From NCBI GenBank assembly GCA_023053575.1, contig JAKZAP010000018.1, positions 20,959,458 through 21,023,457 on the forward strand: DNA of 64,000 nt, read 5' to 3'. The stretch comes from Branchinecta lynchi. Taxonomy: Eukaryota > Arthropoda > Branchiopoda > Anostraca > Branchinectidae. The notes beneath the pieces are model-generated. The model ran no database searches. It had not been told where the DNA came from and saw only the letters and a program-made list of their open reading frames with translations. A program made the translations under genes and the position numbers. Positions 10,601 to 43,600 of this stretch are shown one piece after another. How positions within the stretch are numbered: position 1 is the first letter of the stretch; the number at the start of each line of letters is the position of its first letter.

Positions 10601-13600
10601 TGCTTGACCGCCGTTTACAAACCTAGAACGATGAGGGCAGCTTAAAAAGACAATCTCAAGGGATACGACACATTTTTTCTTTGCTCCCACAACTACTCCA
10701 TAGATTTAATAATCTGAATACTATGTTACTTTATTTCTTTCCACCGACATCGGTCAGTAAATTACAAAAAGAAAAACACAAAATAATGGCCAAAAAAGCG
10801 TTACATACGCTTGTTAATAGAAGTGTCAAACAACAATTGCACACTGATTGACAATGGACCGAACTTCTTGGACTACAGAACGACAGACAAGTTATCCTCC
10901 AACCATCCGGGAAATTCGGACACAATCAAAAGTTTAGTGTTTTATGTGTATTTTTATTTTGTATTTTTATTCGTACTCCGCTGTTATAAAAAAAAATGGG
11001 TCAAAAGCAAAGAAATAAATAAAAAAATCATGAAAGTATCCCTAGAACTCCATGATTTGTTGAAAATCAAATTTGGTTCAGAGCACGGCTTCCTTCGCTT
11101 GTTTTTGTTGGTAACTGATTTTGATCTCCCACCAACGTACAAAAGAGGAGGAAAAAAATTTATTTTTACTTTGTGTATTTTATTCATACTCCGTTGTTAT
11201 AAAAAAACGGGTCAAAAGTAAATAAATAAATACAAAAATCATGAAAGTATCCTTAGAACTCCATGATTTGTTGAAAATCAAATTTGGTTCAGGGCACGGC
11301 TTCCTTCGCTTGTTTTTGGTGGTAACTGATTTTGATCTCCCACCAACGTACAAAAGAGGAGGAAATAAAAGTATAAAAAGTATAAAAAGGAAAGTATCCT
11401 TAGAACTCCATGATTTGTTGAAAATCAAATTTGGATCAGGGCACGGCATCCTTCCCTTGTTTTTGATGGTAACTGATTTTGATCCCCCACCAACGTACAA
11501 AAGAGGAGGAAAAAAAAAAAAAAAAATAAACGATCCATGACGAACGATACGAAAATAAAACAAATTGTGTCTTGTTTGCTTTAGCCTACTGTATGGCATC
11601 ATGAATTAATTGCTGCAGTTTCAAGGACACAAGACGTCATCTGCTGTATGGTCGATTGTAACGAGTGAACAGCCCCCCCCCCCCCCTCCTGAAACCCCAG
11701 ACACATACAGATATATCAAGTGCTCAGTACAAGTAATGCGGAGGAAAACAGAAAACGCAGTAGCAGGGAGTTCTTTTTTAGCCTGCTGGACTCGATAGAT
11801 AGATATCATCTCTCCAATAAATCTCATCCCTCAATATATCCAATAAATAGATTAAAATTAACGTCATTGAGGGATGGAGGAGTAGCCACAAAAAGTACAA
11901 AAACTGGTTTTTAGTTTTTTAAATGATATAAAATAAGTTGAATTACAAAAGACGCAACGGGAAAAAAAAACAAAAAAAAAACTCCGGTTTATCAGAAAAC
12001 AGGCATATTCATTCCAACATGTCTCTTGCCACTTTCTGAAAATCATTTGTACAAGCATTAACGAAAAAGCCCCCCCCCCCCCCCCCCCCCCCCCCGCCAC
12101 ACACACACACGTCACATATAGTCCTTTCTGTAAAGAAGAAATAATTAGGAAGTAGTAGGGTCCACTGTTAGGGAAGTTTTAAGTTTATGGGGGACTGAAC
12201 AGGGAGATAGCATACCTCCAATACATCTGAGAACAGGCACAACAGTAAAATTTCCCCTTTGCAGTTGAAAGCATCGTTCAAAGCTAGGACTTCTATTTTG
12301 TTGACGAAGCTCCGGTTGGCGTTTACCATATGAGGCTAAAAAAAAGAAGAAACAATTTGAATAAAAGGGATCAGAATACCAGCAAAATCCCATCGAGCTT
12401 TCCTGGTGGCTCGTCCCGTCTTTACAGCAACCCTGCGCATGCATTGCAACCAATTATTTTTTTGTTAGTGCAGCCTGCCACCAACCACAGGACAAGGCGA
12501 TCTCCAACAAAGTCAGGGCTTTCTTTGCTGATAATATCCAAATCACCCAAAATCCCATTTGCCTTCTCGATGAGATCTGCCCGAAATCTTTGTCGGCGCG
12601 TAGACACCAATCAACTGACAATAGCGTTCGGCAGCAAGTGTCTGGCGTCACATGCGCATCGTGCCATTCTACCTGACTTTGAGACTACAGCAAATAGCAG
12701 GCGACAGAGACAGAGGTTTGCTGCTTTCCCAGAGACTAGAAAGACCACCTATAAACTCGACAGATCGTTACCTGATATCGTGCACCTTATTTTACCCAAT
12801 ATTTTAATTCTAGTTAAGTCAAATTATATTTTAAAGTTGTACGTGTAGGTGAAATGTCTACTTATGTAATTGTCATGTGTCATTTGCGTGAATAACAGTG
12901 CTAGAGTGTATAATACAAGCTCAAATTAAGGAAATAAAGTACATTATTAAGTGTGCACTAAGTTTGGTTATAAACTACTGGAAGGCCCATTCATCGGCAC
13001 ATACTCCTCCCCCCCCCCTCCCCATGTCCCAGACCACACAAATAATAATTCCTTTATTCTCCATAATAGCATAAGAAAAACGCTAGCTTCGGATAGTCAA
13101 TTACATGTTAATATACTTATTTTCAACACACTTAAAAAAAAAAAAAAAAAAAAAAACAGCCTCAGGAATTAAAGTTACGTACAAAATAAGGTACAAATGA
13201 AGACAAGTACCGGTCAGTCGAATTTACAGGTGGCAGGCTTAGCTTTTGAAGACCGATTGACCGTGTAAACTGCCTAGTACAGGACTTCGGTCGTAAATCT
13301 GACACATATTCAGGCAAAATATCTCTGTGAGTTTCAGACGACAGACATTTGAACCCAAATTTCATCGTCAGGGCATGTCTTCTTTCTTTAAGGGTCGGTA
13401 GACATAATACACTAAGACTATCTTCATATGAAACATACTGGGCCCCTAAAATGATTTTGCACGCTCGCTTTTGGATACCCTCGAGCTTATCACTCAGAGT
13501 CGAGGTGAGGCCAGGGTGCCACACCGGACAAGCGTATTCCGCATTTGGCCTAATGTAAGTGCAGAAAATAGACCTCAGTTGCTTGGAAGGAATCGCGAAT

Positions 13601-16600
13601 CGACGTAACGCGGCAAACGACCGTAATAACAGAGCGCATTTCTGAACTATGGCCATGACGTGGGATTGCCATTTCAGGTCGCTCTCAACTGTAACGCCAA
13701 GGATTTTAACCTTGTCCTGAACAGTGAGGCCGATATCTTCAACAGGTGGCAATTCACGCTTTAAAAACGACACTCTCATTACAACACTTTTAGGTAGGCT
13801 TACTGTTAACTTAACATCATCAAGGTCACGCGTCAGTGTAGAAAATATCTGTGAGAGTGGAGGCTGGGTCGACTGTGACGATAAAATTCGTAGCGCGAGA
13901 CTGGACAGGTCGTCAGCGAACTTATAACGATTCAACAGACTTTTTAAAACTCGATTAAAAACTATAAGAAAAAGAATTGGTCCAAGCTTCGTCCCCTGAG
14001 GCGCGCCGCAAAAAATTTGGAGAAAGGACGAAACCCGATCTTTATCCAACATAACGCACTGTTGCCGACCCGTTAAGAAGCTAGCTATCATCCGGATTAA
14101 AAATTGTCGAGCGCCCATAGTTCTAGCTTCTTGTAAGGTGATTTCGTGGTCAAGACTGTCAAAGGCCTTGACTATGTCGCTTAGTATAATTTCGGCATAA
14201 GCATCATCGACTTCGAGATGCTTATGCACTTCGTCAAGTAATCGGATCAGATAGTGTGTAGTACTATGGTCTGGACGAAAACCGAATTGGCGAGGGTCAA
14301 TGTTAGGCTCAATATCCTCCCACAATAACTCAAAAATAAAACTTTCTAAAACCTTCGACAAAATAGGCGTTTTAGAAATCGGTCGAAGGTCATTTACAGA
14401 TTGCGGTTTTTTCCCTTTAGGTATGGGCGTGACATAAGCGCTCTTAAAACATTCCGGAAAAACGCCATCAATAAAACACTGATTGAAACAAGCGGTTAAA
14501 ACAGGGCTAAGCTCACTCGCACATTCCACGATAAGCTCAGTAGGAATCTCACTCGGGTAGGATGCTTTCCGAGGATCAAGGTTACGGATTTTCTTTTCGA
14601 CTGCACCGATCTCGAGAATGGGTATTTCAGACACTGAGGGCAGATCGGGCATCACACTAAGGGGAGGATGGACTCTACAAATGGCAACAAAATGGTCATT
14701 AATAAGGTCAGCACTTACAGGCTCCCCAGCTTGATCATAAACAACCACAGGTTTTTGCTGTCTACCCATTATTTCTTGCACTTTCTTATGGAACGTGCGA
14801 GGGTCCGAGTTAGCAAGCTTGGCGACAGTAAAAACACCATACTCTTTCCGCGCTTTGCGAGTCAAGGTCACTATTCTATTTCGAAGCCGTTTTGCTTCGT
14901 CAAGCATACCCCAAGCATAAAAACAATCACGTTCCACCATGAGTTGTTCCATCTCCTTTGTCACCCATGGCTTGCTTTGGGGCTTAATCACTTTCCTCTT
15001 TTCAGGAAACACTTCTCTGTATTTATCATAGAGCTCTTCGGTCAGAGACGAGGTCATGGAGTTGCCGTCAGTAAGGCAAAGGACGTTACACCAGTTTTTG
15101 TTTTTCAACCACTCTTTGTACACAGTTACCTGGTTGGGAGTAAATGGCCGGTAGACAACCGTTCGTTTCTCTCTAACTGGTGCTTTTTCACTCGGTTCCC
15201 AAATAATGGTTAAGTGATCACTGAGACCGATGGGGGGGACACTGTATGGGGCATCGTAAAAGTCTGAGATGTTCGTAAATATTAGGTCTAACGTTTTGCT
15301 GTCACGTGTTTTCACTTTCACGATTTGACAGAGCGATAATGTATCCGCTATCCACGACGGTCTGAGATCGTTAAAGTCACCAAGAACTGTTATTGCAGCG
15401 TAGGGATACTGGGAACGTATCGAGTCGACACATAGCTGCAAATACGTCACTAGGTCTTTCCGGAATGGACCCCTGGGCGGATAGTACAATACACCAAACA
15501 CCATTGAAGATACCTCCTTCGGTAGGTACTTTGGTCTGGTCCATACCCACAGAATCTCAAACTCAGGATTCCGAGGAACTTTAGTGTTCAGTTGGCGGTT
15601 GGGGATTGATGAACGGCAGAGCAGACCAACCCCACCTCCATGACTCACAGGGTTTCCATCTTTGTCAAGTCTTGGTAACATGTACACATCATAACCCGAA
15701 ACGTCGACTAGAGACTCAGTCGCGGACCAAGTCTCAGACAGGCATGCAACATCAACTGAGTGTTTCCTCAGTGTTAGATCAAGTTCTTCAAGTTTATTTG
15801 CGAGAGATCTCACATTTGAGAGGAGAACTTTCGGAAATGGGTTTGAGGAACACTTTCTCTTTACCTCGCGGTTTAGAAGTTGCCTACATGGGACGACTGT
15901 AGCATCAGGGGTAGGAACCTGTTCGTAATCGGTATCGGGTGTTGGTATATTGCGTTGGGAGGTGGTGGGTGTTGGTAAACTGCGTAGGGGGGTGGTGGAG
16001 GTGGAAGGTGGAAGAACCAAGAGACTGGCAGAGCAGAGCAACCAGTTCCTAGAATTCAACCCGTAAGTACATCTCTTGCGCAGTATGACAAAAATTTCGT
16101 TCCCTTTCCAAGTTTTCTAACACATATCTTTAAGTTATAATTTTTAACGTCACTATTTCTATCTGTGTATTCTTATTAACCAATTGTTTGACGACGTGTG
16201 AATTTAATTGTATATAAAGTACCATATTTGAAGAGAAGACGAACTATTTTGGCTACTGTTAAAACACGGTCCTTTGAAAAATAAATTACTGATTGATAAA
16301 AATCCGTCCATTGCCGGTTCGGGAGATAAATACCGTTTGAAGTTGAAAGTTCGTGAGCAAAAATGAATGGGGTGACAGGGAAAGCAAAGTGGACTGGTAT
16401 CTCTAGCACGATTTGGCATCAAATGAAATGCTTAAAGTTTAACCGAAAAGGACTGAGATAGGACAATCTAGTTACCCATCACTTATTCACTTAAAGAGGC
16501 ATGAAGACCAGACGAAAATGCGTTACTTCGTCGCTCCGCTATTCAAGAAAATCACGAAAAATCGATTTTTCAATAGTGGACTTTCCCTGCCGGATTTGTG

Positions 16601-19600: not shown

Positions 19601-22600
19601 CGAAACTTCGACGAGCCAATTCAGGTTTCCCTACAGCCAGAGCTGGTGGACTCGGACCCTGGACTCTTCTCGAAATGGTCTCGAGACGCCTTTTTCAAGG
19701 ACGCGGACTCGTCTATCACGGAGCTGTGCGTCCGCCAGAGCTGTGGACTCGGACTTATCTCGAGACACCTTTTTCAAGGACTCGGACTCGGATTTGCTGG
19801 ACTCGCAGCAGCTCTGCCTACAGTAATTCCGTAGCCTCTGCGTACTCTTCACACACGACATCCAATCGGACAGTATGTGCTTGTAAGCGGGTCGTCACGC
19901 TCACTACAAATTCTCTGTGCCAATTTAGGGATAGTTTTGTCAGGGAACACTTACTGGGCCACGTGGCCGTTGGAAAGAGGACTTTTCCGACTACCACCTT
20001 ACTAGTCGTCTCAGAACGGCCCGAAACAGAGAGCAGTACGGGCGGAACACATACGCGCTCGTGAGGAGAGAGGCACTGAGACGGCTCAGTACTGCCAGAT
20101 GGTGAGCATTTGCGCACCATCTGGGCGCTTTTTAGAGTCGGCTACGCTTTGAATTTTTCAAGTATACCAAATTTGTGTATTTCCCTAAATTTCGGCGCGA
20201 ACTGGGCGCGTTTTGCTCTCCATATCCCTTAGAAACTAATAACAGATTAGGATTTAAGGAACAGAGAGCGACTTTCCACATTCCATATGTCCAGGGTTGC
20301 GGGGGACTCAAAATCTTCACTGAAATATCAAAAATATATTTTGGTAACACTGATATTTAATGCTTGCTGGTTCAAAATATCTCTTACGAAAACACAGGGG
20401 CCCTCCATGGAGACAAAAAAAAACAGCAAAATGCGCCGGCGCATTTTTGAGTCACCATGAATCCAGATCTGGAATTAGCCTGTCAAAGATCTAAGTTCTG
20501 GTTCAGACTGTGGTCAGAGTGCGGTAGGCCTAAGCAAGGGCCTTTTCACAAAGCGTCGATTTGCGAAGAGTCTTGCTAAGCATAGAGTAAGCGTAATTGA
20601 TAAGCATAGCCAGTCTCTTTACAGTGATCCAAAAGATGTTTGGAAGTTTATAAAGCAAAGGCTGGTATAGCGCCACCTGATAAAGCTGTTCTCACCGACG
20701 AAGAGCTGGTGGAACATTTTGCCAGCAAGTTTGCTTCCCTGATTATGATATCGAGAAAAAGTTTAACTTAGAGCTCGATGAGTCCATCGAGTCCCATACC
20801 TGTGATCTTGGGTTTGTTGTGACAACCCGGAAAATCAAAAACGCCATAATGAAAATGAAGAAGAAACATTCAAGTGTCATTGATCAGCGTGATGCAGCTC
20901 GTTCACGGGTCTTCATCCCTTATAAGCCACTTAGACCTATTTTATCAGATAATTTTGTATTGTGAGTTAGTTCCGGATACTTTTTGTACGGGGTCATTAC
21001 ACCTGTGCGAAAAAGGTTAAACATGGCGCCGATTGTCAGTCTTACCGCCCAATAACTGTTTCTCCGGTGTTGTGCAAGCTAATGGAATCTCTTGTGATTG
21101 ATATGTTAATTCAGACCTGCTCCAAACCAGTTCGGTTTTAAAAAGAGTCATAGCCGTGAACACGTCCACATCATACTTACGAACATTTTACTTGAAACCG
21201 CTTCTCCGAGGATCCATTGTTTCTTGCTGTAACTACGGTTACTATTTCGTGAAGGTTGGAACGGTCAGCGTAGTAACTTTTTACGAGATTGGAACGAAAA
21301 TATCAACTGATAGTTCCTACTGCTAGAAGGTTGGAACACGCTTTCAGTCACTTACTGGGCAGTTTTCAATGTCGTTAAAGATGTCGAACAACGCCAGTTG
21401 GCTCTCTGTCTTTCGCTTATCCTCGTTGACATGCGCATTTACATCTTTCACCATCGCCAAAGCTTCTTCTAAAGCGACATGATCTTGGCTTCCCTTGGAA
21501 GTATGCTTCAGGAGATCTAGAAAAAAAAAATGTCTACGAATCGTAACCAAACCTTAAGACGCAATAATCAGATTCCGGTCTTCAGCTTCTTTGCTTAATA
21601 CAAACCTCTACTCGGTCACCATCCATACCAGCCGAGATTTCAGTCATGAACCACTATTGTTCTATAGAGCAACCAATTTCGACCAAGAACAGAAATAAAA
21701 TGAAAGTAGACACTGGAAATATTATTGAGTTTGTGGATTAACTGCTACTTTTACATTTCGTTTGTTTAATATAGTGTATGTCCATGCTTAGCCCTAGTAT
21801 CTTCAAGTGTTCCTCTCTATAGGCCTACCCAACTATGTATTGATTTAGTGCACTAATAAAACGAACATGAACTGCAGATACTGCACAGCTCATTATTCTA
21901 TGAATGTTCATTATTTTCCTTGAAAAAAGCTAAGAATCCTGGCGTCTCGAAGCGCATCAACATGGTGAGCAAAGCAGCTAGCCACTTGCGAGTAGGAATT
22001 AAAGGAAGTGAATGTATGAGCAACTTTTGTTCAGTGGGTACTTTAGTGGACGGAATCGATTGCTGCTATCACAAAGAACAAATAATCAGATAGAGCCTCC
22101 GTCTCCCTATCTCTGTACTATGGCTATGCGGAGTCGAGTATTTCTCCGTACCTTTTGGCTTTGAACGAGCGGAGGTTAGTAGCTTCACGCCATATCACGT
22201 TTCGTTACCTCTACAGTTAGCTATATCGACCACCTTGAGGAAAGTAGAAGACAAAGCTGGTTTGGACGCGCTCAAGAGCGGGTCAGCGCGGAGTACGCCT
22301 CGTGCATTTTTCTTTCTCTGCGATGAGCGACGGCGAAGGCGTAAGTAGAGTAGGCGGGTAAAAAGACAAAGAAAATACCTCTAAGTTCGCTCAAGGTAGC
22401 CTATTCATAGTCGCTGCATGGTACCAGCGAGAAAGGTTCTATCTGATTATCTGTTCTTGCTATCATGACGTACAGAATGGAGTTGGTTTTCTGCCAGTTT
22501 TGAGGTTAATTTTGAGTTAACGAGTTACTCGCAGAAGGTAGGTTTGGAGTCACCTAAATATCGATAAGATTGAAAAGTGTCGATATTTCGATATTGACTT

Positions 22601-25600
22601 TTCAAATATCGATATTTTCGATAGTTGCATTATGATGTGTAACAGTTCTATCAATAGGGATTTCAAACTTGATTTTGATTGGGGAGGAGAAACAGACTGG
22701 GAAGAAAGAGCGTGGAATTGCTAGTATTTCTTAATGGAATCTTTGATTTTGTTATTTTAGTTCAGTTTTTTTCTTGCTAGTTTTTTTTTGTCCGTGAAAA
22801 TGTAGCAGTATAAACATATTCTTTGAGCCCAAGCTGACTTTGAAACATTTATTCAAACAGGGTTTACAACGGATACGTCAGCTACGATTCTTCGTCAGCG
22901 ATATTTCGGCCCTTCTTGGCAAGGGTCCTCGTCAGGCTGTCAATCCTCTGGTTCAACTTCGGGGAAGGAAACAAACCTGTAATCTAGATTAACATTCAGG
23001 TAACCTGAATGTTACCTGGCGTATTAAACTGAAACAACCAAGGTGTAGCCAGCTGCCTAGTGAAAGTACACCTTGGTTACAGCTGATACGCCGCTCACCA
23101 TCGGTAAGGTAAGGTAAAGTACAATTAGATTGAGAAGCATGAAATATAAATGATATAAAAGCGACAGACATGCCAGTGGCATACGAAAATAATGCATTGT
23201 AAATTTGAACTGATTTGTTAAAAAAAAATAATAAAAGCCTAGCCTAAGGCATTTGGCACATGTCCCCCGATGGGATTTGCGACAGGTTCCTTCGAGCTTT
23301 ATCTTGTTCCGTGATCTCTTCCCACCCACCCCTCTTCGGAGGAGATCCCCCAAACTCACTAAATTTCCACAGGTAACACAAGGATGCGCACTTTCAATAG
23401 ATAACACTCAAGATGATGGACGTTATATTTTTCAAACGTTACCGGTTGAAACGTTGTGAATACAAGAAGAGCCAAAACACTGCCGGAAAAGTGTCTACTG
23501 ACTTTTTTTTGTGGTCGTGACTAAGGTTTTGGTATCGACGACGGTAATGAAAAAGATTGAAATAAATGCAACTGCAAAGGGGATTCCCTACGACGAAAGG
23601 GCATCATTTGACGCAGGAAGTGCGAAGAGGTAAACAAAAAAAATTGTGTTGTTAATGTCTTCAGGACAAAAACCCCTTTTTGGTTTGGTTGCAAAAAAAA
23701 ATAAATAAGGAGGTTAATATTCTTATAAATAATAAGTTTTAAATAAAAAGGAAATTTTAAGGAAAGGAGATATTAAAGAAGGAAAAAGTAAAGAAAAATT
23801 TCAACGTTTTAAAGATATGACGTAAATGGTAAAATGAGAAAATAAAGGTACCTAAACGAGGAAATAAGAAAGAATATTGAAAGATTAAACGTAGAGATAG
23901 AGGAAAGTGTAGGAGACGCTAAATATATAGGTCGGTCACTGAAAAAAAACAAGACCAAAGGTTTCGATGGGATCCCAAAAATTCAATATCTGATCCAGAC
24001 AACTGGGTCTTGTCTTCGCCAGATCCAGTCTTCGCCAGACTCCTTGAACATGTTTACTATTCAAATTCAGAAACAGATTAAGGCCAAATAGCTAATCATC
24101 TGAGAAAACCAAGTTCAGATATGGATTCAGCATGTGTGTTTACGCCTATAAGTCATATCTGTTTTGACCAAAACTTCCTGCCACTTCTCCCAATTTCCCG
24201 GTTTCTGCCGAACTGCGGAACTACTTGTCTGGAGAAAAAAGAAACCTCAAAAACGAACTCAGGGTATCTTCTTTCCCCAACTTCAAATAAAAATTTAACT
24301 TATAACAAATTTTCCGACTCCGACCGGATTCCGGTCGAACTATCTGTCCAGGAAAAAAATGATTGTCACACACGGATTCAGCATCTCTTCTTACTCCTAA
24401 ATCGGATATTTAATCAACTACAAGTAAAACTTTAACTTTTAACAATTTTCCAGTTTTGACCGGATTCCAGGCGAACTACATGTCCGGGTAGAAAATTGTT
24501 TTCACATAAGTGTTCAGCATGCCTTCTTGCCCTAAATCGAACATCTAATCAACTTCAAATAAAACTTGTCCTTCTAACAAACTTTCAGGTTTTGGCCGGA
24601 TTCCGGGCGAACTAGTTGTCCGATGATAAAATAGTTTTCACCATTGTGTTCAGCAGGTTTGCTTACCCCATAATCAGCTATCACATTAGCTGTTTCAAAA
24701 TATTTTGTTTGCCCCTTAATCTGAACCCCCTCCCCCACCCCTAAATGTAGGGCTACAAAGCCCATCTACGAACTTGACTTGTCCGACGACCCAACGAATC
24801 CTCACACTATGATTCATCAAAATATCTCATTCCCTTCGAGAGTTATCGTGCTTACAGACGGACGGACGGCCAGACGGACAACTTTTGCGATGTCATAGGT
24901 ATCCCTCCACTTACATTTTGGGATCCCAAAAATAATTTAAAATACGAGATGTTAGGACCGTTGGCGTCACAGAGGGAACGTGGATGCGTAGTTACCTGGC
25001 CAAATCATACTGGACAGGAAGAACGAAAAAGATAATATGCAAAGAAAAAAAAGAAAAAAATGACACTGGAAGCAGATGCTTTTCGAGTGTTTTTTTTTGC
25101 GATGTTAGTTATGCACAACGTTTAATGTCAAAAACTGAAATTATAGCAGATAACATTCCAGTTATCTGTTAAATCTGCTCTTTCTTGTGTTAATCTGTTA
25201 TTCTGACAGTACGAGAGAAATCCGAGAAAGTCCCCAAAATTAACACTAATAGGCTAACCTGCAACCATGAAGATAAGTAAAAAATGCATACTATCTTTCT
25301 AGATCTCTTTTATTCTTAAGAATAAAACCGTATCTATATTATCTCATTTGAATCTATATAGGCTACTATGTTCAAACTCTACAGGTATGTTACATCTGTA
25401 AATCTTCTGTAAACACTGAATTGAAGATACGGTAGCTTACGAAAATCTATAGGCTATGTTGACGTACATGACAAATTCGGCACCGATGCTGCGAATATAA
25501 TTTTTGTATTATTTTATATCCTACAACTCTCTACCTACTCTATTTTATCTATTTTTATTTATCTATTTGTGACCCGCTTATTGGATAACAGCGGAGTGTG

Positions 25601-28600
25601 AGTAAAATACACAAATGGGAGCTTCAACAGACGCCTTGAAAGACGTGTTATATCAAACCCAAAAAAAAAGTTAAAGCTCGTGACTTGACGTGATATGTTT
25701 TCCTGGAAAACTTGAAATCGTTATTTAATATATTCCCCAGGGAAATAGAAGCGTCGTCGAGTGAATTCAGTCCACAATAGACCAATAAACTCTCCAAAAA
25801 TGACTTCCAGAAAATCAAAGAGTAGACGAAGAAGAACAAGACGAAAGGTTTGGTATATCAAAAATGTAACATCTGAAATAGACAATTGGGTCTTGCCTTC
25901 GCTAGATCCAGTCTTCACCAGACTCGTTGACCATTTTTACTACTAAAATTTAGAAACAGATGCGCTCTTGACCTTTCTAAAGCTTTTGACTCTGTTGTAC
26001 ATTCTCATGCTCTTTATTCTTTGTCTTCCAGTGGTATTAATTTCTCTGTCATTCATCTCCTAAAGTACTGGTATGGGAATTCTTTCCTCCGTCTTAAAAC
26101 TGGTGATGGTCTTTATTCAGATTCTCTAATTCGTGTAAGGCAAGGTGTGAGACAAGGTGGTGTTTTGTCTCCTTCTATTTTCAAACTGTGTGTTTCCAAT
26201 GTATTGAATAGTCTTCCGACTACATGTTTTTTAGGAAATTCTAATGTCTCATACCTAGCTTACGCGGATGACATTCTCTTAATTAGTCGTACCCGGAAGG
26301 GGCTCTCAGATTCTGTGGGCTTTGTTGCTTCTTCTTTCTCCAGGTTGGGACTTTCTCTAAATGTTGATAAATGTGAGTTCCTTACTTTCAACGTTAAGTC
26401 TTCCTCTAGATCATCACTTACTTGTCTAAATTTTTCTATACCTTTGGTTGAATCTATTAGGTGGTTGGGAATCTCGATTACTAGTAATCTACGGTCACTT
26501 CGCTCGCGTACAGTTTCTGACGCTAAGCTTAAGCTCCAGATTGGTTACTCAAAAATTGTTGCTAACAGAAGTAAATATAACCGTAATGCATTAGCGAAAC
26601 TGTACTCGACCTATTGTGACCACTCTGTTTTATTTTTGTCTGGGTTGTTTCCAATTTTTCGTAAAAAAGATATCCAAGCTCTCCGATCCGCGTATTTCCG
26701 GTACTTGAGATTTTTACTTTATTTGCCACCGTGGTATAAGAATAGACAAATTATCCAGAATTTTAACGATTCGGATGTCACGGCAAAGCTGGCCTTGCTA
26801 CACGAGGGGTTATCCGGGTCTGCAGTTTCGAACCTTGAGCCTTTCCATGGTCTTCTACAATGTTTTTCTCGTAGTTGAGTTATTTTCTTTCTTTTTTGTT
26901 TCTTTTTTGTTTATTTAGCTTATTACTCCACTTTTTCTTGAATGTTGTAGTGGGTTAAAAATAAATTATTATTATTATTATTAAGGCCAAATAGCTAATC
27001 GTCTGAGAAAACCAAGTTCGATATGGATTCAGCATGTGTGTTTACCTCTACAAGTCATATCTATTTTGACGAACATTCCTGCCTTACTTCTTCCAAATTT
27101 CCCCTTTTGGCCAAATTCCGGGTGAACTGTCTGTCCGGCAAAAAAAAAGTTCAAAAACGAATTCAGCGTATCTCCCTACCCCTATATCGAACATCTAATT
27201 AACTTCAAATAAAACTTTAACTTATAAAAAAAAAAATCCGGTTTGTGCCGGATTCCAGGCGAACTATATGTTCGGGTATAAAAATGATTGTCATATATGG
27301 ATTCAGCATCTCATCTTATCCCTAAATCAGAAATTTAATAAACTTCAAACAAAACTTTTGCTTTTAACAAATTTTCCAGTTTCGGGTTTCGCGCGAACTT
27401 CTTGTCCGGCGAGAAAATGGTTTTCATGATCATGTTCAGCATGAAAATCTCTTTAGCTCTTTAAAAATATTTTATTTGTCCCTTAATTTGAGCCACCACC
27501 CCTAAATGTAGGGCTACAGAGCCCATCTAGGAACTCGACACTTCCCTTGACCCAAAGAATCCTCACACCAATTTCACCAAAATGTCTCTTTCCGTTCGAG
27601 AGTTGTCGTGCTGATAGACGTACGGACAACTTTTGCGATGTCATAGGTATCCCTCCGCTTACGTTTTGGGATGCCAAAAAATGGAAGTCAACATAGAAAA
27701 GAGCCATTGTAACAACTGAATGTATTTAGCTACAAATTACAAACCAAATCATGACTAGTGACATGAGTTATTTAAGTTTTTCAAGTGGAACGGTAAGATA
27801 CAAGGACACTATCCACCGACGCGCAAATAAATTTCGTAATTTCAGTAGGTTTAAAGGGTTCTTCAAAAACACCTCGCATTACTTACTCTTTATCTCTCAA
27901 TATTCGAACCCATTCTAATACTATCAGGCTCTTCTTTTAACAAATCATCCACGGTTTTGGCTGTTTTAAGCCTTTACTCAAGCCCATTGACTTCTAGCAA
28001 AAACTTGACAAAATTCACCAGTAGCATGCTACGTGAATACTCGTCACAGATCCTAGAACCCATCCTAAAACAGAACGAGAGACATTTGCGAAAAAGAAAT
28101 TCTTCAGGTAAACGACACAAGCGACGGTTAGATTTTCGAAACCAAAGTCAAGCGTCACCGGTCGGGGTAATCCATAATTGCTTTGTCCGCATCCCAAATA
28201 AAAGATCTTCGAAACAAATTTTCAATGACCGAAGTCGAGTTTCAAATTAGGCTTACTAGATTCGCAGTGCTCAATTCTATATTTCGCACTTACAATTTTT
28301 AAAAACACAATAAGGCGGGACAACGTGGGCAGCTTTTCGTCTATGACCAGAACGCTATTTGCGTTAGATCACAGCTAGTTGGATTTCGAGGTGCGTGCTG
28401 CTGTTCTAGCGTAAGTGAAAGGATATAATACCGTATTAATAATACCACATTTCTGAGACATTGGTTTCTGAATCTGAATATTGCGAAACGATTCTCCCAT
28501 ACCACGCTTCTCGTTCGTATTTCATTTTCAGTGACTTACCACACACTGTAATTACTAGACATTCCTTGAGTTTGTTAGCTCTTTTCAGTCGTTTGGTCGA

Positions 28601-31600
28601 GTATGTATTCAAGTTCCAGAGCAACGTCCCAACTTTCAGATTTCCCTCTACGCCATAAACTGGCCAATAATGAAAATATTCACCCTATTGCTTACCTTGT
28701 TGGCATGCAGCGTACATTACCCGACAGTTGGCGGCGCCGCATTAAGACGAGTCAGATCAGCAATTCGAGAGGACGTGAATGAGACGCCTCTCGACGTCAC
28801 AAGCAATGAGAAATACGACGGTGCGAAGACAACTTTACAGGACGGTGCCCTCGAACACCTCGCATCTACCCGTCAACAAATTAAAAATGTTGAGCCTCTG
28901 TCCGACTCTTTTCCTAACGGGGAAAAAGGAATTAGAGAAGAGACTGAAAAGCCGCTAGATGACGCATTCAGCGAGAATAAAACTGATCCGAAAAATATCC
29001 AACAAGACGGCACTCCAGGCAACTTCACAGCTAATCGCATTCCTCCATCCGAGAATGACAGATTTCAGCAGGAAACACCGGATGAACTGACGGAAGCTCT
29101 ACTTGACGGGACAAAAGGAATCAGAAACGAGAGCGACGAGCAGCTAGATTTTTCCAGCAGCGAGACAGACAATGACCCGAAGAAGACACGTGTGGATGGC
29201 GCACTGGAAAATTCCATAGCTACCCACGCTAAGATTAAAAACGTCCAACCTATTTCCGAGAACAGTGACCGATTTCAGGAGGACACACAGGACAGAAGGG
29301 CCGATGATTCTCCCACTCGGAAAAAAGGAACCAGAGATGAGACTAGCGAGCCGCTAGACTTTACCAGCATCGAGAAAGACAACAATCCGAAGAAGAACCA
29401 AGAGGAAGGCTTTACGAAGAATTTCACAGCTACTCGCGTTCCACCCCAAAACGAACCTTTGTCCGAGAAAACAGATCGTGATCAGCTGGACAAACCGGAC
29501 AAATTGGCGGAGGGTTCTCCCAATAGGACAAAAGGAGTCAAATACGAGAGTGAAGAGCCGTTAGATGCCACCAGCGAGAATGACGAAGATGCGACGAAGA
29601 TCCTACAGGACGACAACCTCGATAACCTCACAAGCAACATTCAAACTATAAACGTCGAGCCTCCATTTCAGCAAGACACACCGGATAAAGTGATAGAAGC
29701 TTCTCATAATGGGACAAAAGTAACTGGAGATGACACCGAAGAGCGGCTAGACTTGACGAGCATCGAAAAAGACAACCATCCGATGAAGAACCAAGAGGAC
29801 GGCTTCCAAAAATATTTCACAGCTACTCGCGTTCAACCCCAAAACGAACCTTTGTCAGAGAACACAGATCGTCATCAGCAGGACAAACCGAACAAAGTGA
29901 GGGAGGGTTCTCCCAATGAGACAACAGGAGTTAGATACACGAGTGAAGAGCCGCTAGATGCCACCAGCAACGAGAAAGACGAAGATCCGACGAAGGTCCT
30001 ACAGGACGACAACCTCGGTAACCTCACAACCCACATTCAAACTATAAACGTCGAGCCTCCATTTCAGCAAGAAACACCGGATAAAGTGATAGAAGCTCAT
30101 CATAGTGGGACAAAAGTAATCGGCAATGAGACTGACGAGCAGCTAGACTCAACCAACATCGGGAAAAACAACAATCCCAAGAAGAAACAAGAAGACGGCG
30201 TCCCGGAAAATTTCACAGCTACTCGCGTTCAATCGAGAAACGAACCTTTGTCCGAGAACACAGATCGTCACCAGCAGGACACACTAAAAAAAGTGACGGA
30301 CGGTTCATCCAATGGTACAGCAGGAGTCAGATACGAGAGTGAAGAGCCGCTAGATGCCACCAGCAACGAGAAAGACGAAGATCCGACGAAGGTTCTACAG
30401 GACGACGACCTCGATAACCTCACAACCCGCATTCAAACTATAAACGTCGAGCCTGCATTTGAGCAAGAAACATCGGATAAAGTGATACAAGCTTATCATA
30501 GTGGGACAAAAGTAATCGGCAATGAGACTGACGAGCCGCTAGACTTAACCAGCATCGGGAAAAACAACAATCCCAAGAAGAAACAAGAGGACAGCTTCCC
30601 GGAAAATTTCACAGCTACTCGCGTTCAATCCAAAAACGAACTTTTGTCTGAGAACACAGATCGTCATCAGCAGGACACACTGAACAATGTGACGGACGGT
30701 TCTTCCAATGGGATAACAGGGGTCATATACGAGAATGACGAGACGGTGAAAAGCATTCATCCCAAAAACGAACCTTTGTCCGAGGATACAGATCGTCATC
30801 AGCAGGACACACCGAACGAAGCGACAGATGGTTCTCCGAATGGGACAACTGGAGTCAGATACGAGAGTGAAGAGACGCTAGATGCCACAAGCAACGAGAA
30901 AGAAGAAGATCCGAAGAAGATCCTACATGACGACGCCCTCGATAACTTCTCAACCCGCATTCACGCTGAGCCTCCATTTCAGCAAGAAACTCGGGATAAA
31001 GTGACAGATCCTGCTCATTATGGGACAAAAGTAGTCGGAGACGAGACTGACGAGCCGCTAGATTTTACAAGCAGCGAGATTGACAAGAATCCGAAGAAGA
31101 CCCAAGATGACGACGCCCTGGAAAATTCCATAGCTACTCGCACTGAAATTAAAATCGTCCAGCCTGTGTCCGACGTTTCTCCTAACGGGACAAAAGGAAT
31201 AAGGGCCGAGACTGAAGAGCCACTAGATGTCACCAGCAACGAGAAAGAGGATGATCCCAACATCCTACGAGATGGCCCCCTCGGCAACCTCAAAGCTACC
31301 CGCAGTCAAACTAATATATTCGAGCCTCCATCCGAGAACAGTGACCGATTGCAGCAGGAAACAGAGGAGAAAATGACGGACGCCTCTCTCAATGGGACAA
31401 AAGGAAAAGGAGATGAGACTGACCAGCCACTAGACTCCGCCAGCGGTAAGAAAGACAACGATCCGAAGAAGACCCAAGAGGACGGCACCCCGGACGATTT
31501 CACAGCCCTCACTCCGGCTCAAAACGCGAAACCCCTCTCAGAAACAACAGATAGTCATCAGCAGGAGGCTGTGGATAAAGTGGTGGGTATTCCACATGAT

Positions 31601-34600
31601 GCTCCAGAGGTATCTCTTAAAGCAACTGCACATCGGGGATCAAACAACATGGAACGAACGCGTGTTGCCACGAAGAGTCCGCAACCTGTGAGACCTATGG
31701 GTACAAAGCCACTAAGCCGTCGGACCAGTCGTCAGCCAAAAGTATACAGCTCAATAGGCACTCCAAGCAAATACGCACCTCTAGAGGAGGATGACGAGTG
31801 GCCAATAGGATTTCGCGCTGGCAGGGAAGATCTGCAACTAGTGAAATCTATAGCTACGAGGCCACCGACCCGTCGGACTAGTCCCTGTCAACAAAAAAGA
31901 CAAAATTCAAAAGTCGACCCAAATTATGACGTGAGGCATCCAGAGTATGACGATGAGGAGCCAATAGGATTTCGCTCTGGCAAGGACGATTTAGAAGTAT
32001 CGAAATTTATGAGCACGAGGCCACCGATCCGTCGGACTAGTCCCTGTCAACAAAAAAGACAAAATTCAAAGGTTGATCCAAATTATGACGTGAGGCATCC
32101 AGAGTATGACGACGAGGAGCCAATAGGATTTCGATCTGGCAAGGACGATCTACAAGTATCGAAATTTATCAGCACGAGGCCACCGACTCGTCGGACTAGT
32201 CCCTGTCAACAAAAAAGAAAAAATTCAAAGGTTGATCCAAATTATGACGTGAGGCATCCAGAGTATGACGACGAGGAGCCAATAGGATTTCGATCTGGCA
32301 AGGACGATCTACAAGTATCGAAATTTATCAGCACGAGGCCACCGACTCGTCGGACTAGTCCCTGTCAACAAAAAAGAAAAAATTCAAAGGTCGATCCAAA
32401 TTATGACGTGAGGCATCCAGATTATGACGAAGAGGAGCCAATAGGATTTCGATCTGGCAAGGACGACTTGCAAGTAGCAAAATTTATGGCCACAGGTACC
32501 ACATACAACGACCAGGAGCAACCGTTTTCTCCATCCGACAAAGAGCTTGAGGCCACTGTGGCCACAAAAGCACCAATCCAAGTGACTAGTCCCTATCAAC
32601 CAGACGAAGAAGAATACAATTCAACAGATCAATATGTGCCCCCAGGGGGGAACAAAGAGAAGCCAATGATATCCAAGGATGATAGAAACGAAGTGAAGGA
32701 CACACCGCAGACAGTACCTACAGGGAATAGCACTCGAGACCCACAGAGTACAAAGAACGAAACTGAAGAAGTACGAAAGAAAACTGACTATCCAGAGAAG
32801 GAAAATTTCACTGTGAAAAACAAAAGCAATTTCCAAGATGTCAAAGAATCCAGCAGTGACAGCGTAACCGTCACTCAAGCCAATGAGACAGAGCAGGTCG
32901 CTAGGGGAACTTCAGACAGGATACCTGATGCAGAAGATCAAGGGAAGCGAAATTCGACCAAAGAAGTTAACATCCGAATAATGGAGGTCTGTAAAAGCGG
33001 AGAGGCTATGTTACAATCGATGCTGCTCCCACTAGTATTGACTCAGTTACTCATAAAAATATGAACTGAAGAAGCAGTGATAACAAGTTGAAGATAAATC
33101 TTTTGTTTACTTTTTTACCGTTCGAGTAAATCAAAATGTTGGATTTATTCAAAAAAAAACTTGGGTTTATCGATGTCAGCAAACACTGATTCCCTCGTTC
33201 GACTATCCTTTGTTGACGGGCGTTAAATCAGTAAGTCGTCTAAGATTTGCTCTGGCAGTATTTCAGTCCTTCTTGGCGAGGGTCCTAATTAGGCTGTAGC
33301 TCGAAAAATCGTAGATTCGTCTGGCGCCAATAAGTGCGATTCGCAGTCAGCTTGGGCCAAGAGTAGTTTGGGTTAGACTATAGTTGCGATTTTGCATCTG
33401 TTACCACGGTAACTGAATCTGCAATTAGTCGTTTTTGCAGTGGCCGTGGTATCTGATTGCTCGATTGCTTTGCAAAAACGACTATTGCCGAATTGCACTT
33501 TGCGAAGCCATCCCCAAAGAACAAGAGCTAGAGGCTCATATGGCACTTGCTACGCTGGGTAAGATGGAAGTGATAGTCAAAAGTATTTTTTTTTTTCACT
33601 TTTCGGTTAAGACGCGCACTTTAAGTGTGCTTAAAAATTAATTTCTAAGCGAAACCATTGAGGCGAAAGGGATCCTGCACTCACGCCGATCGTGAAAAAG
33701 TCAATTTTTCTTAAAAGTATTTTTTGTATTTTTCGGTTAAGATGAGTTCTTTAAGGGTTGGTCGGATCAGAGAAGTGGCAATGTCTAACACAATGATGTC
33801 AAGTTTCTAATGCTCTAGCAAAGTTTTATCGTCCTAGCACATCTGGAAGTATCTTAACTCACGGTCACCGGAATTCCGGACGCCCCCTACAGCTCCCCCC
33901 TTCCCCTCGGTACTGGATCCGCTAAGATTCTGTCAATGATGCACCTAGCACTTGTAACTGTACTTCCCACCAAGTTTCATCCTGATCGCTCCACTCTACG
34001 CGTGTCACAAGATTTACGCCTCCCCCCCCCCCACACAGTTCATTAGATCCGGTCCGGACTTGAAATGGGACATCTGAGACATGAGGCCTTTCAAGACGTC
34101 AAGTTTCATTAAGATCCGATAACCCTTTCGAAAGTTATGGGTGCCACTAATTTCCAGATTCTGCCGTCTCCCCCTCCCCCCACGATGGTCAGATAGGGCG
34201 AGTGACTGTTTCCAAGTTAATCTGGTCGAGTCCCTAATATGCCTGCCAAGTTGAATCGTCCTAGCCCACCTGGAAGTACATGAACTAGGGATCGCCATAA
34301 TTCCGGAACCACCCTCCAACTCTCACACAGTGTCCGAATCCGGTCCAGTCCTGTCAGTTATTTATCTAGAGCTTGTGCTTGTACTTCCAACCAAGTTTCA
34401 TCCCGATCGCTCCACTCTGAGACGCCCCTATTTTCTGGATTCCGCAACCTCTCCCTCCCCCCACGATGGTTGGATCGGGCAAGTGACTATTTCCTAGTTG
34501 GTTTGGTCGGGTACCTAATATGCCTGCCAAGTTTCATTGTCCTAGCACTTCTGGAAGCACCCTAACTCGAGAAGAGTGGACCGACAGACCGAAAGGTGAT

Positions 34601-37600
34601 CGGTATATGGCACTTGAGCGAAGCTGCAAGTGCCGTAAAGACTTATATCCAGTTACATCACTAAGTGCTAAACTTCTGTATCACCAATCTGACAAAATTT
34701 GATGAAAGTGAGATGAGTTTTCAGATACCACGACCAGTTAACACGGTCGAACCGTAGTATCTGAATACCAGATACCACGATAACTGGCCAGATACCACGA
34801 TAACTGCAAAAACGCCTTTTGACCATGGTATCAGATACCACGATAACTGCAAAAACGACTTTAGACCGTGGTATCAGATACCATGGTATCTGCAAAAACG
34901 CAACTTATGTTCTTCCTTGCTGAACACTTAAAATGTCAAACCGCAAAATTTCTGAAACATATAACAATCGATGCAGCCTAGCCTGCCTAGTAGAGAAAGG
35001 CTATAGGTAATTTGTAAGTAACCTTAACCCAGAACGGCCCGAAAGGGCATGATGAAATCGGACCTTGCCAATGTTACTACTCAGTAATAAGCTCAAGTGG
35101 TAGTTTACGTTTAATAAAGACCAAACTGAAGCCGCTAATTGTGATTCTTTTGCTTTATGTTTCTCAGTTTATTATGACTTTCCCCCGAATAGGCTACGGC
35201 TTTCAGCATTTTCCATACCTCTAAGACCGTCCGAAATATCCCCCCCAAAAAAGAACATCCCAAAACAAATCGAAAATCTGATTTTATGCTCGTTCTCTAT
35301 GTCTAAATAAGGCTGAAACTTGCTCTTAGCTAAGATTCTCAATTTATCATCCCCAATTTGTGTTTTATGTATGAATAACAAAATCAAGATGTTACAAAAT
35401 TTAGAAAAGTTGTCATATCAGCTTACCACTCAGGTCTATCTCACATCAGCTCTAATTCGCAACATGTTTCAAAATCTATCGTCGAAACCAATGGGGAATC
35501 GGATACCGGTTGTTATGCCGCTAGCACCATCTACGAAATTCATATGCGGGCATAGATTTATTCCTTGGCCTTAGCTTCTGCCAAACTGCCTAGACTGAAC
35601 ACTATTAGCCAGATGGCTGGAAACACTTACTATTTGTTTTACCACGAGGGCCATTTTCAAAATCGGTAACATATACTAGTAGTATCCGAAATAGGCGGCT
35701 TAGCAGAAGGCAAAACCAACGAGACAATCGATGCTAGAATATGATTATCGCAGATTGCGCTACCAGTCCGAACGCTGGCTTTCAGATCCCCCCCCCCCCT
35801 CCTTTTTACTCTCTACGGTTTGAAGAGCGGCGTACGGATCGAAATTTGATCACAATTCTGAATAACCTGGAGAGGGTTGAAAAAAAGGAACAAAGATGAA
35901 AGCTGATGGCACTCCTCTGCCCACTCACCTTTGTTGCCGATCGTCATTCATAAAATTGCTTAAGCTCAAACTTTTACAACATTATTCAACTTCTTCAACA
36001 TTTTGGAATCTCTCGAAAGAAGTTTTCAGTCGAATAGCGTATTTCGTGAACGAACTATTATTATAATTTATTCGTCGCTTTATTAGTCTACAACATAATT
36101 TTTCCGATACCGAATCCGTCATCAAGATATTCAGTCTAGGTGCCGATGCTTGTCTTAGTGTTGGGCTTAGTGTTCATTACCTCCGGACCATTTTATCATG
36201 AATAGGCCATTTCTATTAGGCTAAGAGTTGTGCGGGTACGACCACACTTTCTCTGTCATATTACCAGGTAGTGTGCTGTCTGTTTTAACTGCCCATCCTT
36301 GTGTCAAAGTTTTGAAAGTTCTGACAGTCTGTGACTCTTTGGTTCCTTGGGGCCAATCGTAATTTGACCCCGTTGTTGCACTAGAAAAAACCTCTCCAGC
36401 AGCGATCGCGGTGGTAAATACGTTCTGATTCGAAAAACAGTAAAAGTCAAAGTCAGTAATCTGATAGTGTAGCCAGATGAAAAATGTGTGGCTTGTAAAG
36501 TTGTATAATAGTTGTGCGAATAACATAGTACATAGTAATAAAGCATACTATAATTTAATGTACCTCAGACTGAGACAATCTTAAAGTTTAACTGAAAAGC
36601 CAACTTATGTCATTTAACCGAATACACTGCACTATTTGGATTGTCTTAAGGGATTATTCTTATTTTCCACTATTTGCTCTTGTACGATGTTCAGAATACA
36701 ACGGTCATCGTCACAACGCAAAACTCTACTATGACGCGGAGATCTGAATCAACATACAAACGTGGTTTTTCAGCAGCCAGTGATCAGCTCGGGAAGGCAG
36801 ATCCGTGAGTGAAGACTTATTTCTCGTAAATTGTTTTCGTGAGCATACAAGAAAAGTACAGGCGCAAAGAGTTACCACAAATACGACGGGGAAACTCCAC
36901 TACTTCAAAACTGATTATTTCTGAATAGCGGAGCAAGGAAGTAACGCATCTTCGTTCGGTCTTCAAGCCTCTGAATGTGAAGAAGTGATGGGTAACTAGA
37001 TTGTCTTACTTCAGCCCTTTTCTGTTAACCTTTAAGCAGTAGTACCGAGTAGCATCCAGTCTTGCTAATAGTAGCATGCAGTGGTAACAGCTACTACTAT
37101 ATGCTATAAAAACTTACAACTCCGTAAAACTAATTCTTGAAAACTTTTCATCGGGAAGCGCACCTTCAGCTTTGATTAAACGTAGATGGTGGTACGTACC
37201 GTTCAGGAGAAGACTGACGCTAGGAAGGCGCTGTACTGGACGGATCATAAGCTCTTGAAGGGACTGTCGACCACATTCGGGCTTTCCTTGTCCGATCTTC
37301 AGGAATGCATGGAATCGAGGCTTCTGTCTGTCACATTGAACAAGCATCTCTTTTGAACTTTCGAAGAAGTTGACGTAAGGGGGGTAGGCACGCAGGAGGT
37401 CCGAATGCTAAAACAGTATGGGGCATTAAATCATTAGCGACCAATGATTTTTTTTTCACGGCCTTTTGGCTTTTTTGTGCAATTAAGTCTTGTCCTTTTT
37501 CTATGTCATCCATTGGGGAGAGGAAATTTATTTTAAAGCTGGGTTGTCGGGAGTAGATTTAAAGTGGATGGCGAGTTTAAGGGGGGGGGGAATAGCTATT

Positions 37601-40600: not shown

Positions 40601-43600
40601 GTTTTAAACTGAACTGAATTGAACATTCCAAGTGTTGTCTGCTGAAACCGCACATCCTTCTGTCATCTGTTATGAAACTTCTGACACTGTAACAGCTAGA
40701 TTTAATATGTTTTGGAAAGTTACTTCTCAGGGATTACTTGAGATGAAAGGTATACTGATGCAATTTAATTTTAGACACTTCATACATTTTTTCTTCATAC
40801 ACAAGAACTGACTCAAAACGGATGTTAGCTAGGATTTTTTTCAGCGATGTATGATTCCTAGAGTGTGTTCCACCCTTCTAACAATAGTTACTATTAGTTA
40901 CTATTTCCACTCCATCCTCACGAAACGTTACTACGCTGACCGTTCCAACCTTCTCGAAATAGTAACTAATAGCTACTATTTGCTTACCATGCTCGGGAGC
41001 TTAGTAAGCGTAGTAAATACGAATCTCTGTAGCGTCATTGGTCGGATTTGCACGTGGCATGATATCATTTCATTTCATTTAATTTATTTGTATCCGCCGT
41101 ATACGACGAGTGTAAAATATATAAAGTAAATAAACTATAACAAATATTCTTTGAGCCCAAGCTGACTTTGAAACATTTATTCAAACAATGGTTACAGCGG
41201 ATACGTTGTCACGTCAGCTATGATTCTTCATCAGCGCTATTTCGGCCCTTCTTGGCAAGGGTACTCGTCAGGCTGTCAATCACAGTTAAACCAGAGGATT
41301 GACAGCCTGACGAGGACCCTTGCCAAGAAGGGCCGAAATAGCGCTGATGAAGAATCATAGCTGACGTATCCGTTGTAAACATGAATAAACTATAACAGGT
41401 TTAAACACTATACATCCCTGCTGGAAAATAGAAAAATCGTTCCAGCCTTGACGGCAAAAAGCCTAAATTCGTGATGTCATGCGTAGGAACTACGGTAAGT
41501 AGGGTGGAACACGCTCCCGGATAGCCTGCGCTGAAGGAGTATTTCACCTTCATTTTATATCAGGTTCGCTCGTATAGCTACAGCCTGACGAGGAACCCTT
41601 CCAACAAAGGCCGTCAGCTCCCTGGGATAACCTCCACTTACTTGTCTGTGTAGCACCATCGACCAAGTGCAACTTTTCCCGGACACCATCTTGTACTGAA
41701 CCCTATTCGGTCCACATAAAGGTTATCAAATTAGTATGTTACATCCCTCTGAATGAACGAATGAAGGATTTATGAGAGAGGGAGAGAGACGGGTTTAATG
41801 CAAACAACCGGCAGTGAGACACTGAAAGGGTTGTAAAAAAAGGGTCCCTGAGGCACGCCACAATAGACTCTGTTTTCTTCCGATAAGATGTCTTTCCCAT
41901 CTTCGGTTCCAAACCTGACATAATGTTTTCTTTCTGAAAGGAAGCTTCTTAACCAGGTAATGATGTGACGTGGTAGTTCGAGTTCTCTAAGTTTTTCGAG
42001 TAGAAGGGTATGGTCGACCAGATCAAAAGCTTTAGCCAAGTCAATTGCGACAATCGCTGCAGCTCTCCCCTTCTTGTCCGTCAAACGTAGAACGTTGTCG
42101 GTCAAGTCGATCACGTAATGAGATGTCGAAACACGTTTCTGGTTACCAAATTTCATCTACTATGTACTGTTCTAACATTTTTGAGAGGATAGGGGTAAGA
42201 GATATGGGTCGAAAATTGCCGGGCTCCTTTGGGTTATCAGTGCGTTTATCAAAGCACTGCCCAAGGGCGTAAGAGCAGTAGAGAAGGACAAAGAAATACA
42301 AAGTAATCGCAAAACACTCAACAAATATTTTCCATAAAGGTTTACTAATTTGGAATCACATTGATGGGATCGTGAACAGGCAAGTTTCCAATCGGTGAAC
42401 ACAAATCAGAGAAGAGGGCTTCAAGAGTCAACAACGGGTCGGAAATTAACAAACGTCTAATTAGGTAGCGGTTCGGCGTGCGCCGTGGCAGGTAGAGAAG
42501 AAATCTCAGATATCTGAAGTATGTCCAGCGTGTGAACTACACCCACACTGTAAAAAGTTTCTCCGAGTAAGTAAGTAAGTAACCTAATTATTTGTAACCC
42601 GCCATTTTGGAAGAGCGGAGTAAATGAAGAAAATAAATAAAATAATGAAAAACACAGAAAAAGACAAGGATTAAAGTTAACTGCAGTATTTGCTACTGGG
42701 ATTAATTCTCTACCGAGTTAAGATTAATCCAAATTAGAGATAAGATTATCTTTTTAGAGACAAGATAAATCCCAGTATGAAATACTACAAGATTTTTTTG
42801 TATAGTGCATACACCCATCAAAAGCAAACTCACATATTTGATGAATACTTGGCCGACGTTGGTACTTTCACTCCAGGAACTGGCCGTATTTTTCAGGTCT
42901 CGAAGCAGCATTTCATGGACGTCGATGATTGGTGGAAGATTTCCGAAAATTATCCGGACTTCCGTCCCATCTAAGAGAGGGCCTCCGGGTTGGTTTTCCA
43001 TCTCCAATGGCATCCGAAAAACCTATGAAACACAGGGTAAGTTGTAACAACGAGATTCTTCAACAGGATCCCCAAACCTTGGAAAAGCTTACCAGTAGAA
43101 GTGGTAGGTTAGACTATCGTCCAAATGTTGAAGCGTTCTATTGTAGTCCCTACAATAGAACAATAATATATTACAATGATTCTCATTCATTTTTATTTTT
43201 TAAACTATCCTAAAAAGTGAAGGAGAAAAGTTGAAGGAAAAAGTCGCCTTAAATTAAGATTGCCGAAAAATAAGCCAGTGCTAATGGGATAATGCAGGAT
43301 TGATTTCAAATTCAATCTCCGTGTCTTGATTAATTTTCGGTTGTCGTGCAAGCAGCACACATTCTGAACGTCATTACTAGAGCCTCGAATCAAAAAATGA
43401 AAATCGCTAAGATGGGTCAAAATGTTTCAGTGTAGCCTGTTCAAATACCAGATGTGCAAATAAACTGCCTTTTCAGTTATACTTTAAGGTTTCATGAAAT
43501 ACAACTGCTAACAGGAGGCGTGCTAAAAAAAACTGTCGATAAACAAAAATGTGGAAATATGGAAAAAAAAGTTTGCAAATTATCCTACGTTATTTATGGT

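What the first reader, a model, noticed from the sequence alone, without database searches (positions are those of the whole stretch)
28670..33064. Uncharacterised secreted repeat protein nested antisense in an ECT2 intron
Seen: 1464 codons without interruption, a clear signal peptide, two unrelated tandem arrays, over 25 N-glycosylation sequons and a hydrophobic C-terminal tail resembling a GPI signal. The gene lies wholly inside the 15.7-kb d/e intron of ECT2 on the other strand. I recognise no family. Its integrity amid heavily decayed surroundings suggests selection. It is the best candidate for a novel protein in this window.
Basis: partly seen in the sequence, partly recalled or inferred. 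Interest (0 to 1): 0.8.

Follow-up and report, generated by a model that had tools for sequence, protein, structure and literature searches.

The report
Secreted repeat-protein gene inside ECT2 intron
An intact, probably real animal gene for a long, flexible, probably sugar-coated secreted protein made of two kinds of repeats sits backwards inside an intron of the cell-division gene ECT2; the arrangement is an ordinary one, and what the protein does is not yet known.

Summary
An open frame of 1464 codons lies at 28670-33064 (+), wholly inside a 15,683-bp ECT2 intron (37199-21517, minus strand; three nearby exons match solved ECT2). It encodes a signal-peptide-like start, 14 full and one partial degenerate units (55-70 aa), an unrelated array of four near-identical and one diverged 53-aa units, 28 N-glycosylation sequons and a hydrophobic tail. 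It looks coding, not open by chance: the other five frames carry 47-97 stops, array-1 units avoid stop-making changes (1 against 7.7 expected), and array 2 shows purifying selection in this frame (11 of 20 changes synonymous, 5.25 expected, P=0.004). Array 1 drifts almost freely in amino acids. Best reading: a disordered, acidic, secreted or GPI-tethered coat or matrix protein. Main rival: a multi-copy peptide precursor. No curated family matches the whole protein, but the protein collection also missed a metazoan control, so orphan status is untested; the own-genome search did not complete, so copy number is untested. Antisense nesting of intronless genes is common. New member of a known kind; moderate interest.

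The parts
28670..33064 (+). single-exon coding sequence, 1464 aa
   Evidence: stops in other frames and Markov control
28670..28741 (+). signal-peptide-like N-terminus (aa 1-24, small residues G-G-A at the likely cut); then R-R-V-R (aa 26-29), a minimal RxxR furin-type site
   Evidence: sequence; 15-residue hydropathy 2.04 at residue 1; motif; cleavage rules recalled, no predictor run
28784..31621 (+). array 1: 14 full units of 55-70 aa (consensus PLDxTSxEKDxDPKKxQxDGxLxNFTATR...) plus a partial extra unit at 30746-30874; two unit types alternate in a 132-aa higher-order repeat in the middle
31700..32494 (+). array 2: one diverged 53-aa unit (31700-31858, 41% identical) followed by four near-identical ones (the other three 94, 94 and 89% identical to the first)
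32495..32989 (+). unique acidic C-terminal region with 7 sequons
32990..33061 (+). C-terminal tail from CKSGEA (aa 1441-1464), hydrophobic, GPI-signal-like
   Evidence: 15-residue hydropathy up to 1.83; helix, block-mean pLDDT 72 and 74 over the last 17 residues
21517..37199 (-). ECT2 intron (15,683 bp) that holds the gene

Best explanation
A real single-exon animal gene, nested antisense in an ECT2 intron, that encodes a secreted, acidic, largely disordered, probably heavily N-glycosylated repeat protein, held at the cell surface by a GPI anchor or released into a coat or matrix. Shown: intact frame, two in-frame arrays, avoidance of stop-making changes, and constraint on the array-2 peptide. 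Inferred: the signal peptide and a short RRVR-ended leader are removed; array 1 works as a long flexible spacer whose length and charge matter more than its sequence, growing and shrinking by unequal exchange; array 2 (RRTSPCQQKR...PEYDDEEPIGFRSGKDDL; one cysteine and one strongly acidic tyrosine in each of the four near-identical units) is the sequence-specific, multivalent part, binding a partner or cross-linking chains.
For: Open frame and chance controls. Unit spacings in both arrays are multiples of 3 (this follows in part from the open frame and is not independent of it). Array 1: among 263 distinct changes in 70 codon columns of 14 units, 1 stop-making type against 7.7 expected under random placement, 0 of 2000 draws as low. 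Array 2, four units: 11 synonymous and 9 amino-acid changes, 5.25 synonymous expected, P=0.004; the two shifted plus-strand frames gave 2 synonymous of 19 each; pooled pN/pS 0.26. Charge-hydropathy on the disordered side for the mature protein and each of the three parts tested; single-sequence AlphaFold models of residues 1008-1464 and 1-427 have mean pLDDT 42.2 and 47.2. 28 sequons. No DNA-level match to the ORF elsewhere in the window.
Against: No transcript data. No AATAAA or ATTAAA between the stop and 35000. Array 1 shows little amino-acid constraint: A group 17 synonymous of 63 (P=0.29), B group 8 of 44 (P=0.84), all 14 units 72 synonymous against 64.9 expected (P=0.08). Sequons in array 1 are no commoner than random placement leaves (19 against 17.7, P=0.40), so glycosylation there may not be selected. 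Low pLDDT without an alignment is weak evidence of disorder, and residues 428-1007 were not modelled. The GPI-like tail is short and ends in K-I.
Confidence: 0.5

Rival explanations
1. Precursor of many secreted signalling peptides: proprotein convertases cut at the basic sites of array 2, and the glycine in R-[SA]-G-[KR] becomes a C-terminal amide, giving five related acidic peptides ending in PIGFRS-amide (four) or PIGFRA-amide (one), the four with a possibly sulfated tyrosine.
For: Signal-peptide-like start; RR in five of five units, KR in four of five, R-[SA]-G-[KR] in five of five, the diverged first unit included; the clearest purifying selection lies in array 2.
Against: G-[KR] is followed by an acidic residue, not a second basic one; no G-[KR]-[KR] in array 2; the other conserved residues of the unit (DL...K, the cysteine) are not explained; a 950-residue second array and a GPI-like tail are unusual for such precursors (recalled). 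The PIGFR block is identical in DNA in the first two units, so its invariance there may come from gene conversion.
Confidence: 0.17
2. Part of a repeated or mobile element (a multicopy transposon ORF), not a host gene.
For: Flanks at 27401-27683, 27926-28018, 33231-33314, 33516-34421 and 34424-34642 match other places in the window; copy number in the genome untested.
Against: No DNA match of the ORF elsewhere in the window; no long terminal repeats around it, only a 15-nt inverted pair (28001/33792, 87%) and an A+T-rich 18-nt family among the 20 of 29 direct families shown; no reverse transcriptase, integrase or other element domain in it; residues 1008-1464 found no relative in viral contigs.
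Confidence: 0.08
3. A recently lost or never used frame, kept open because its units are multiples of three.
For: Array 1 amino-acid changes are close to neutral; no transcript data; no polyadenylation hexamer nearby.
Against: Unique ends are open too; stop avoidance in array 1 and purifying selection in array 2; the other frames of the same arrays are full of stops.
Confidence: 0.07
4. A secreted lectin of the OAA (MBHA/BOA) kind, with one sugar-binding loop per array-2 unit.
For: The profile of array 2 against PDB sequences ranks myxobacterial hemagglutinin (E 0.00018) and BOA (0.00083) first, on the motif Y..E.PIGF[RK].
Against: Stretches of at most 15 residues align and none passes alone (per-stretch E-values 24 and more in the four alignments shown); the total comes from summing the lectins' own repeats. 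No Pfam lectin match; no confident fold.
Confidence: 0.03

Closest known systems
Nested intronless genes on the opposite strand of a host intron (Assis 2021, PMC8467205, passages seen; the Drosophila Gart / pupal cuticle protein pair is recalled)
   Same: Inside one intron, opposite strand, no intron in the coding sequence; 74.3% of simple human nested pairs and 77.8% of mouse pairs are opposite-strand (PMC8467205, passages)
   Different: Long coding sequence (4.4 kb), where that paper calls internal genes typically short; origin of this one unknown
Secreted, disordered, glycosylated tandem-repeat surface and matrix proteins (mucin-like and acidic matrix proteins, recalled)
   Same: Signal-peptide-like start, tandem arrays, predicted disorder, many sequons, repeat turnover
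   Different: S+T about 17%, P 7.7%, D+E about 20%, so not serine/threonine-proline dominated as mucins are; no sequence match to any
Multi-copy neuropeptide precursors (recalled)
   Same: Repeats with basic sites and G-[KR]
   Different: No dibasic amidation sites in the array; a very large second array
OAA-family lectins (MBHA, BOA)
   Same: Y..E.PIGF[RK] motif
   Different: Nothing else of the domain matched

Membership tests
Nested antisense intronic gene | whole coding sequence within one intron of the host, opposite strand | tested here: met
Nested antisense intronic gene | independently transcribed | not testable with these tools
   no RNA data
Secreted repeat protein | N-terminal signal peptide | tested here: inconclusive
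   hydropathy and cleavage rule by eye; no predictor
GPI-anchored protein | small omega residues, spacer and hydrophobic tail | tested here: inconclusive
   CKSGEA plus about 18-residue tail; no predictor
Neuropeptide precursor | copies bounded by dibasic sites with glycine for amidation | tested here: inconclusive
   RR 5 of 5, KR 4 of 5, G-[KR] 5 of 5 but followed by an acidic residue
OAA-family lectin | whole sugar-binding domain | tested here: not met
   at most 15 residues align; no Pfam match
Multicopy transposon ORF | further copies | tested here: inconclusive
   none by blastn in the window; genome search not answered
Viral_NABP (PF05515) | domain above cut-off for the whole protein | tested here: not met
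   16.4 bits against 23 for the whole protein; two array-2 sub-pieces reach 24.6 and 23.6 with no stretch passing alone and 47-48 residues aligned

The most novel reading that the evidence does not exclude
A lineage-specific secreted protein family with two unrelated arrays under different regimes: a nearly free-drifting glycosylated spacer and a constrained, sulfatable, cysteine-bearing PIGFR module that is either a multivalent binder or a set of new amidated peptides.
Probability: 0.3. Interest if true: 0.55.

Novelty: new member of a known kind. Interest (0 to 1): 0.36.

Why it matters
If it is expressed, it is a compact case of a fast-evolving secreted repeat protein nested in a conserved cytokinesis gene, and one protein would separate a freely drifting spacer from a constrained repeat module. 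The kind of arrangement is already well known, and the missing data are ordinary (transcripts, relatives).

Tried and rejected
Homology: Pfam, NCBIfam and PHROGs gave no family for the whole protein (one PHROG at E 0.077, no stretch passing alone); the whole protein found no PDB sequence up to E 1 and the array-1 profile none up to E 5. Pieces of array 2 and the C-terminus gave weak Pfam matches: Viral_NABP just above its cut-off in two sub-pieces with no stretch passing alone; MRP, DUF6579, ASFV_P17, Vesiculo_matrix and HAM1_N below their cut-offs. I treat them all as chance.

Protein collection: two searches, with about 8000 of the best-sharing candidates scored each, none found; a control with the window's DOMON protein (165 aa, 268 candidates) also found none, so these misses say nothing about animals. 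Viral contigs (residues 1008-1464) and genome contigs (whole protein): 4 and 43 pattern matches, none a relative. Rfam and tRNA: none in the window.

Lectin kinship looked at and rejected. Retrocopy origin: no long flanking repeat seen (20 of 29 direct families shown); not settled. Selection on sequons tested and not found (the partial unit was left out). Excess of amino-acid changes in array-1 B units (1 synonymous, 8 changing between two units): in the four-unit group not significant (P=0.20).

Synonymous-change tests in the coding frame: eight runs on seven sets; two lie below 0.02 (array 2, 0.004; units at 29141 and 31055, 0.015), no correction made. Rows dropped: the diverged array-2 unit from the array-2 test, the partial unit from the array-1 tests, and codon columns with fewer than 7 units. 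A possible arthropod initiator (TCAGTC at 28585; the motif is recalled) upstream of the ATG was looked at and not used: such hexamers are common.

Papers: three searches, listing 1, 10 of 39 and 0 papers; of one (PMC8467205) passages were seen, not the whole text. The organism could not be named.

Full report
Observation. The window holds an ATG-initiated frame of 1464 codons at 28670-33064, plus strand. The same stretch carries 72, 97, 47, 51 and 72 stops in the other five frames, and 2000 sequences simulated from its dinucleotide transitions never gave a frame longer than 295 codons. Taken alone, the two arrays also carry 27-67 (array 1) and 10-18 (array 2) stops in each of the other five frames, so repetition by itself does not explain the open frame.

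Nesting. On the minus strand, three exons match solved ECT2 (chain 6l30_A, named Protein ECT2, the top PDB hit each time): 42702-43022 to residues 313-378 (E 7.4e-14), 37201-37407 to 377-444 (E 1.9e-31) and 21350-21514 to 447-499 (E 1.1e-10); two of them also match Pfam RhoGEF. Between the last two the intron runs from 37199 (GT) down to 21517 (AG), 15,683 bp.

Anatomy. MKIFTLLLTLLACSVHYPTVGGAALRRVRS is a signal-peptide-like start followed by an RxxR site. Array 1 (aa 39-984) has 14 full units of 55-70 aa and one partial unit; two unit types alternate in a 132-aa higher-order repeat in its middle. Array 2 (aa 1011-1275) has one diverged 53-aa unit and four near-identical ones; against the first of the four, the others are 94, 94 and 89% identical and the diverged one 41%. 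Then follow an acidic unique region and a hydrophobic tail. There are 28 sequons: 21 in the first 984 residues, none in 985-1275, 7 after that. D+E are 289 and K+R 194; there are six cysteines, four of them at 53-residue spacing.

Is it coding? Spacings of successive unit copies in both arrays are multiples of three, which partly restates the open frame. In array 2, 20 distinct changes among the four near-identical units split 11 synonymous to 9 amino-acid changing; placing the same kinds of change at random gives 5.25 synonymous (P=0.004), and the two shifted plus-strand frames give 2 synonymous of 19 each. In array 1 the 263 distinct changes among 14 units (70 codon columns with at least 7 units) include 1 stop-making type against 7.7 expected, with no draw of 2000 as low, and 72 synonymous against 64.9 expected (P=0.08). 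The one stop-making type is a change counted against the consensus codon; the real frame has no stop. Within array-1 groups the amino-acid changes are near neutral: A 17 synonymous of 63 (P=0.29), B 8 of 44 (P=0.84); one pair (29141 and 31055) leans to purifying, 15 of 40, P=0.015. These tests treat columns as independent and ignore gene conversion, so the P values are approximate and uncorrected. The block PIGFR is identical in DNA between the diverged unit and its neighbour, so conversion may account for its invariance there.

What it is not, as far as tested. No curated family matches the whole protein. The array-2 profile ranks OAA-family lectins first in PDB sequences, but through stretches of at most 15 residues repeated in the lectins, with per-stretch E-values of 24 and more in the four alignments shown. 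The ORF has no second copy in the window by blastn, and no long terminal repeats flank it. The protein collection gave nothing, but it also gave nothing for a DOMON-domain protein of the same window, although its two exons match Pfam DOMON at 8.2e-12 and 9.2e-11. The collection therefore cannot speak on animal orphans. The own genome could not be searched.

How it most likely works. A secreted, acidic, probably disordered chain (charge-hydropathy below the boundary in all parts tested; models of residues 1008-1464 and 1-427 with mean pLDDT 42.2 and 47.2) with possible glycans along array 1 and a constrained module in array 2, held at the surface or in a matrix. Array 1 looks like a spacer: its sequence drifts, its frame is kept, and its sequons are no commoner than drift would leave (19 against 17.7, P=0.40). 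Array 2 carries the constraint. The strongest rival is a peptide precursor, because five of five units keep RR and R-[SA]-G-[KR].

Place among known things. Internal genes in introns are typically short and intronless, and most lie on the opposite strand: 74.3% of simple human pairs and 77.8% of mouse pairs (PMC8467205, passages). So the nesting itself is ordinary. The protein is filed as a new member of a broad known kind, fast-evolving secreted repeat proteins, with no relative named here.

Noticed in passing
13162-16116 (-): Open 984-codon LINE-type frame with endonuclease and reverse transcriptase domains, so not all surroundings are decayed.
   Followed up: partly
2518-3260, 24278-24655, 27200-27430, 47332-47856: Related 125-137-bp tandem repeats with a CCGGATTCCGGGCGAACTA-like core, in both orientations (the 27200-27430 copies seen by eye).
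   Followed up: no
58311-59566 (+): Two exons of a DOMON-domain protein, probably secreted.
   Followed up: partly
33427-33457 and 34721-34900: ATCAGATACCACG inverted and tandem copies, like ends of a small inverted-repeat element.
   Followed up: no
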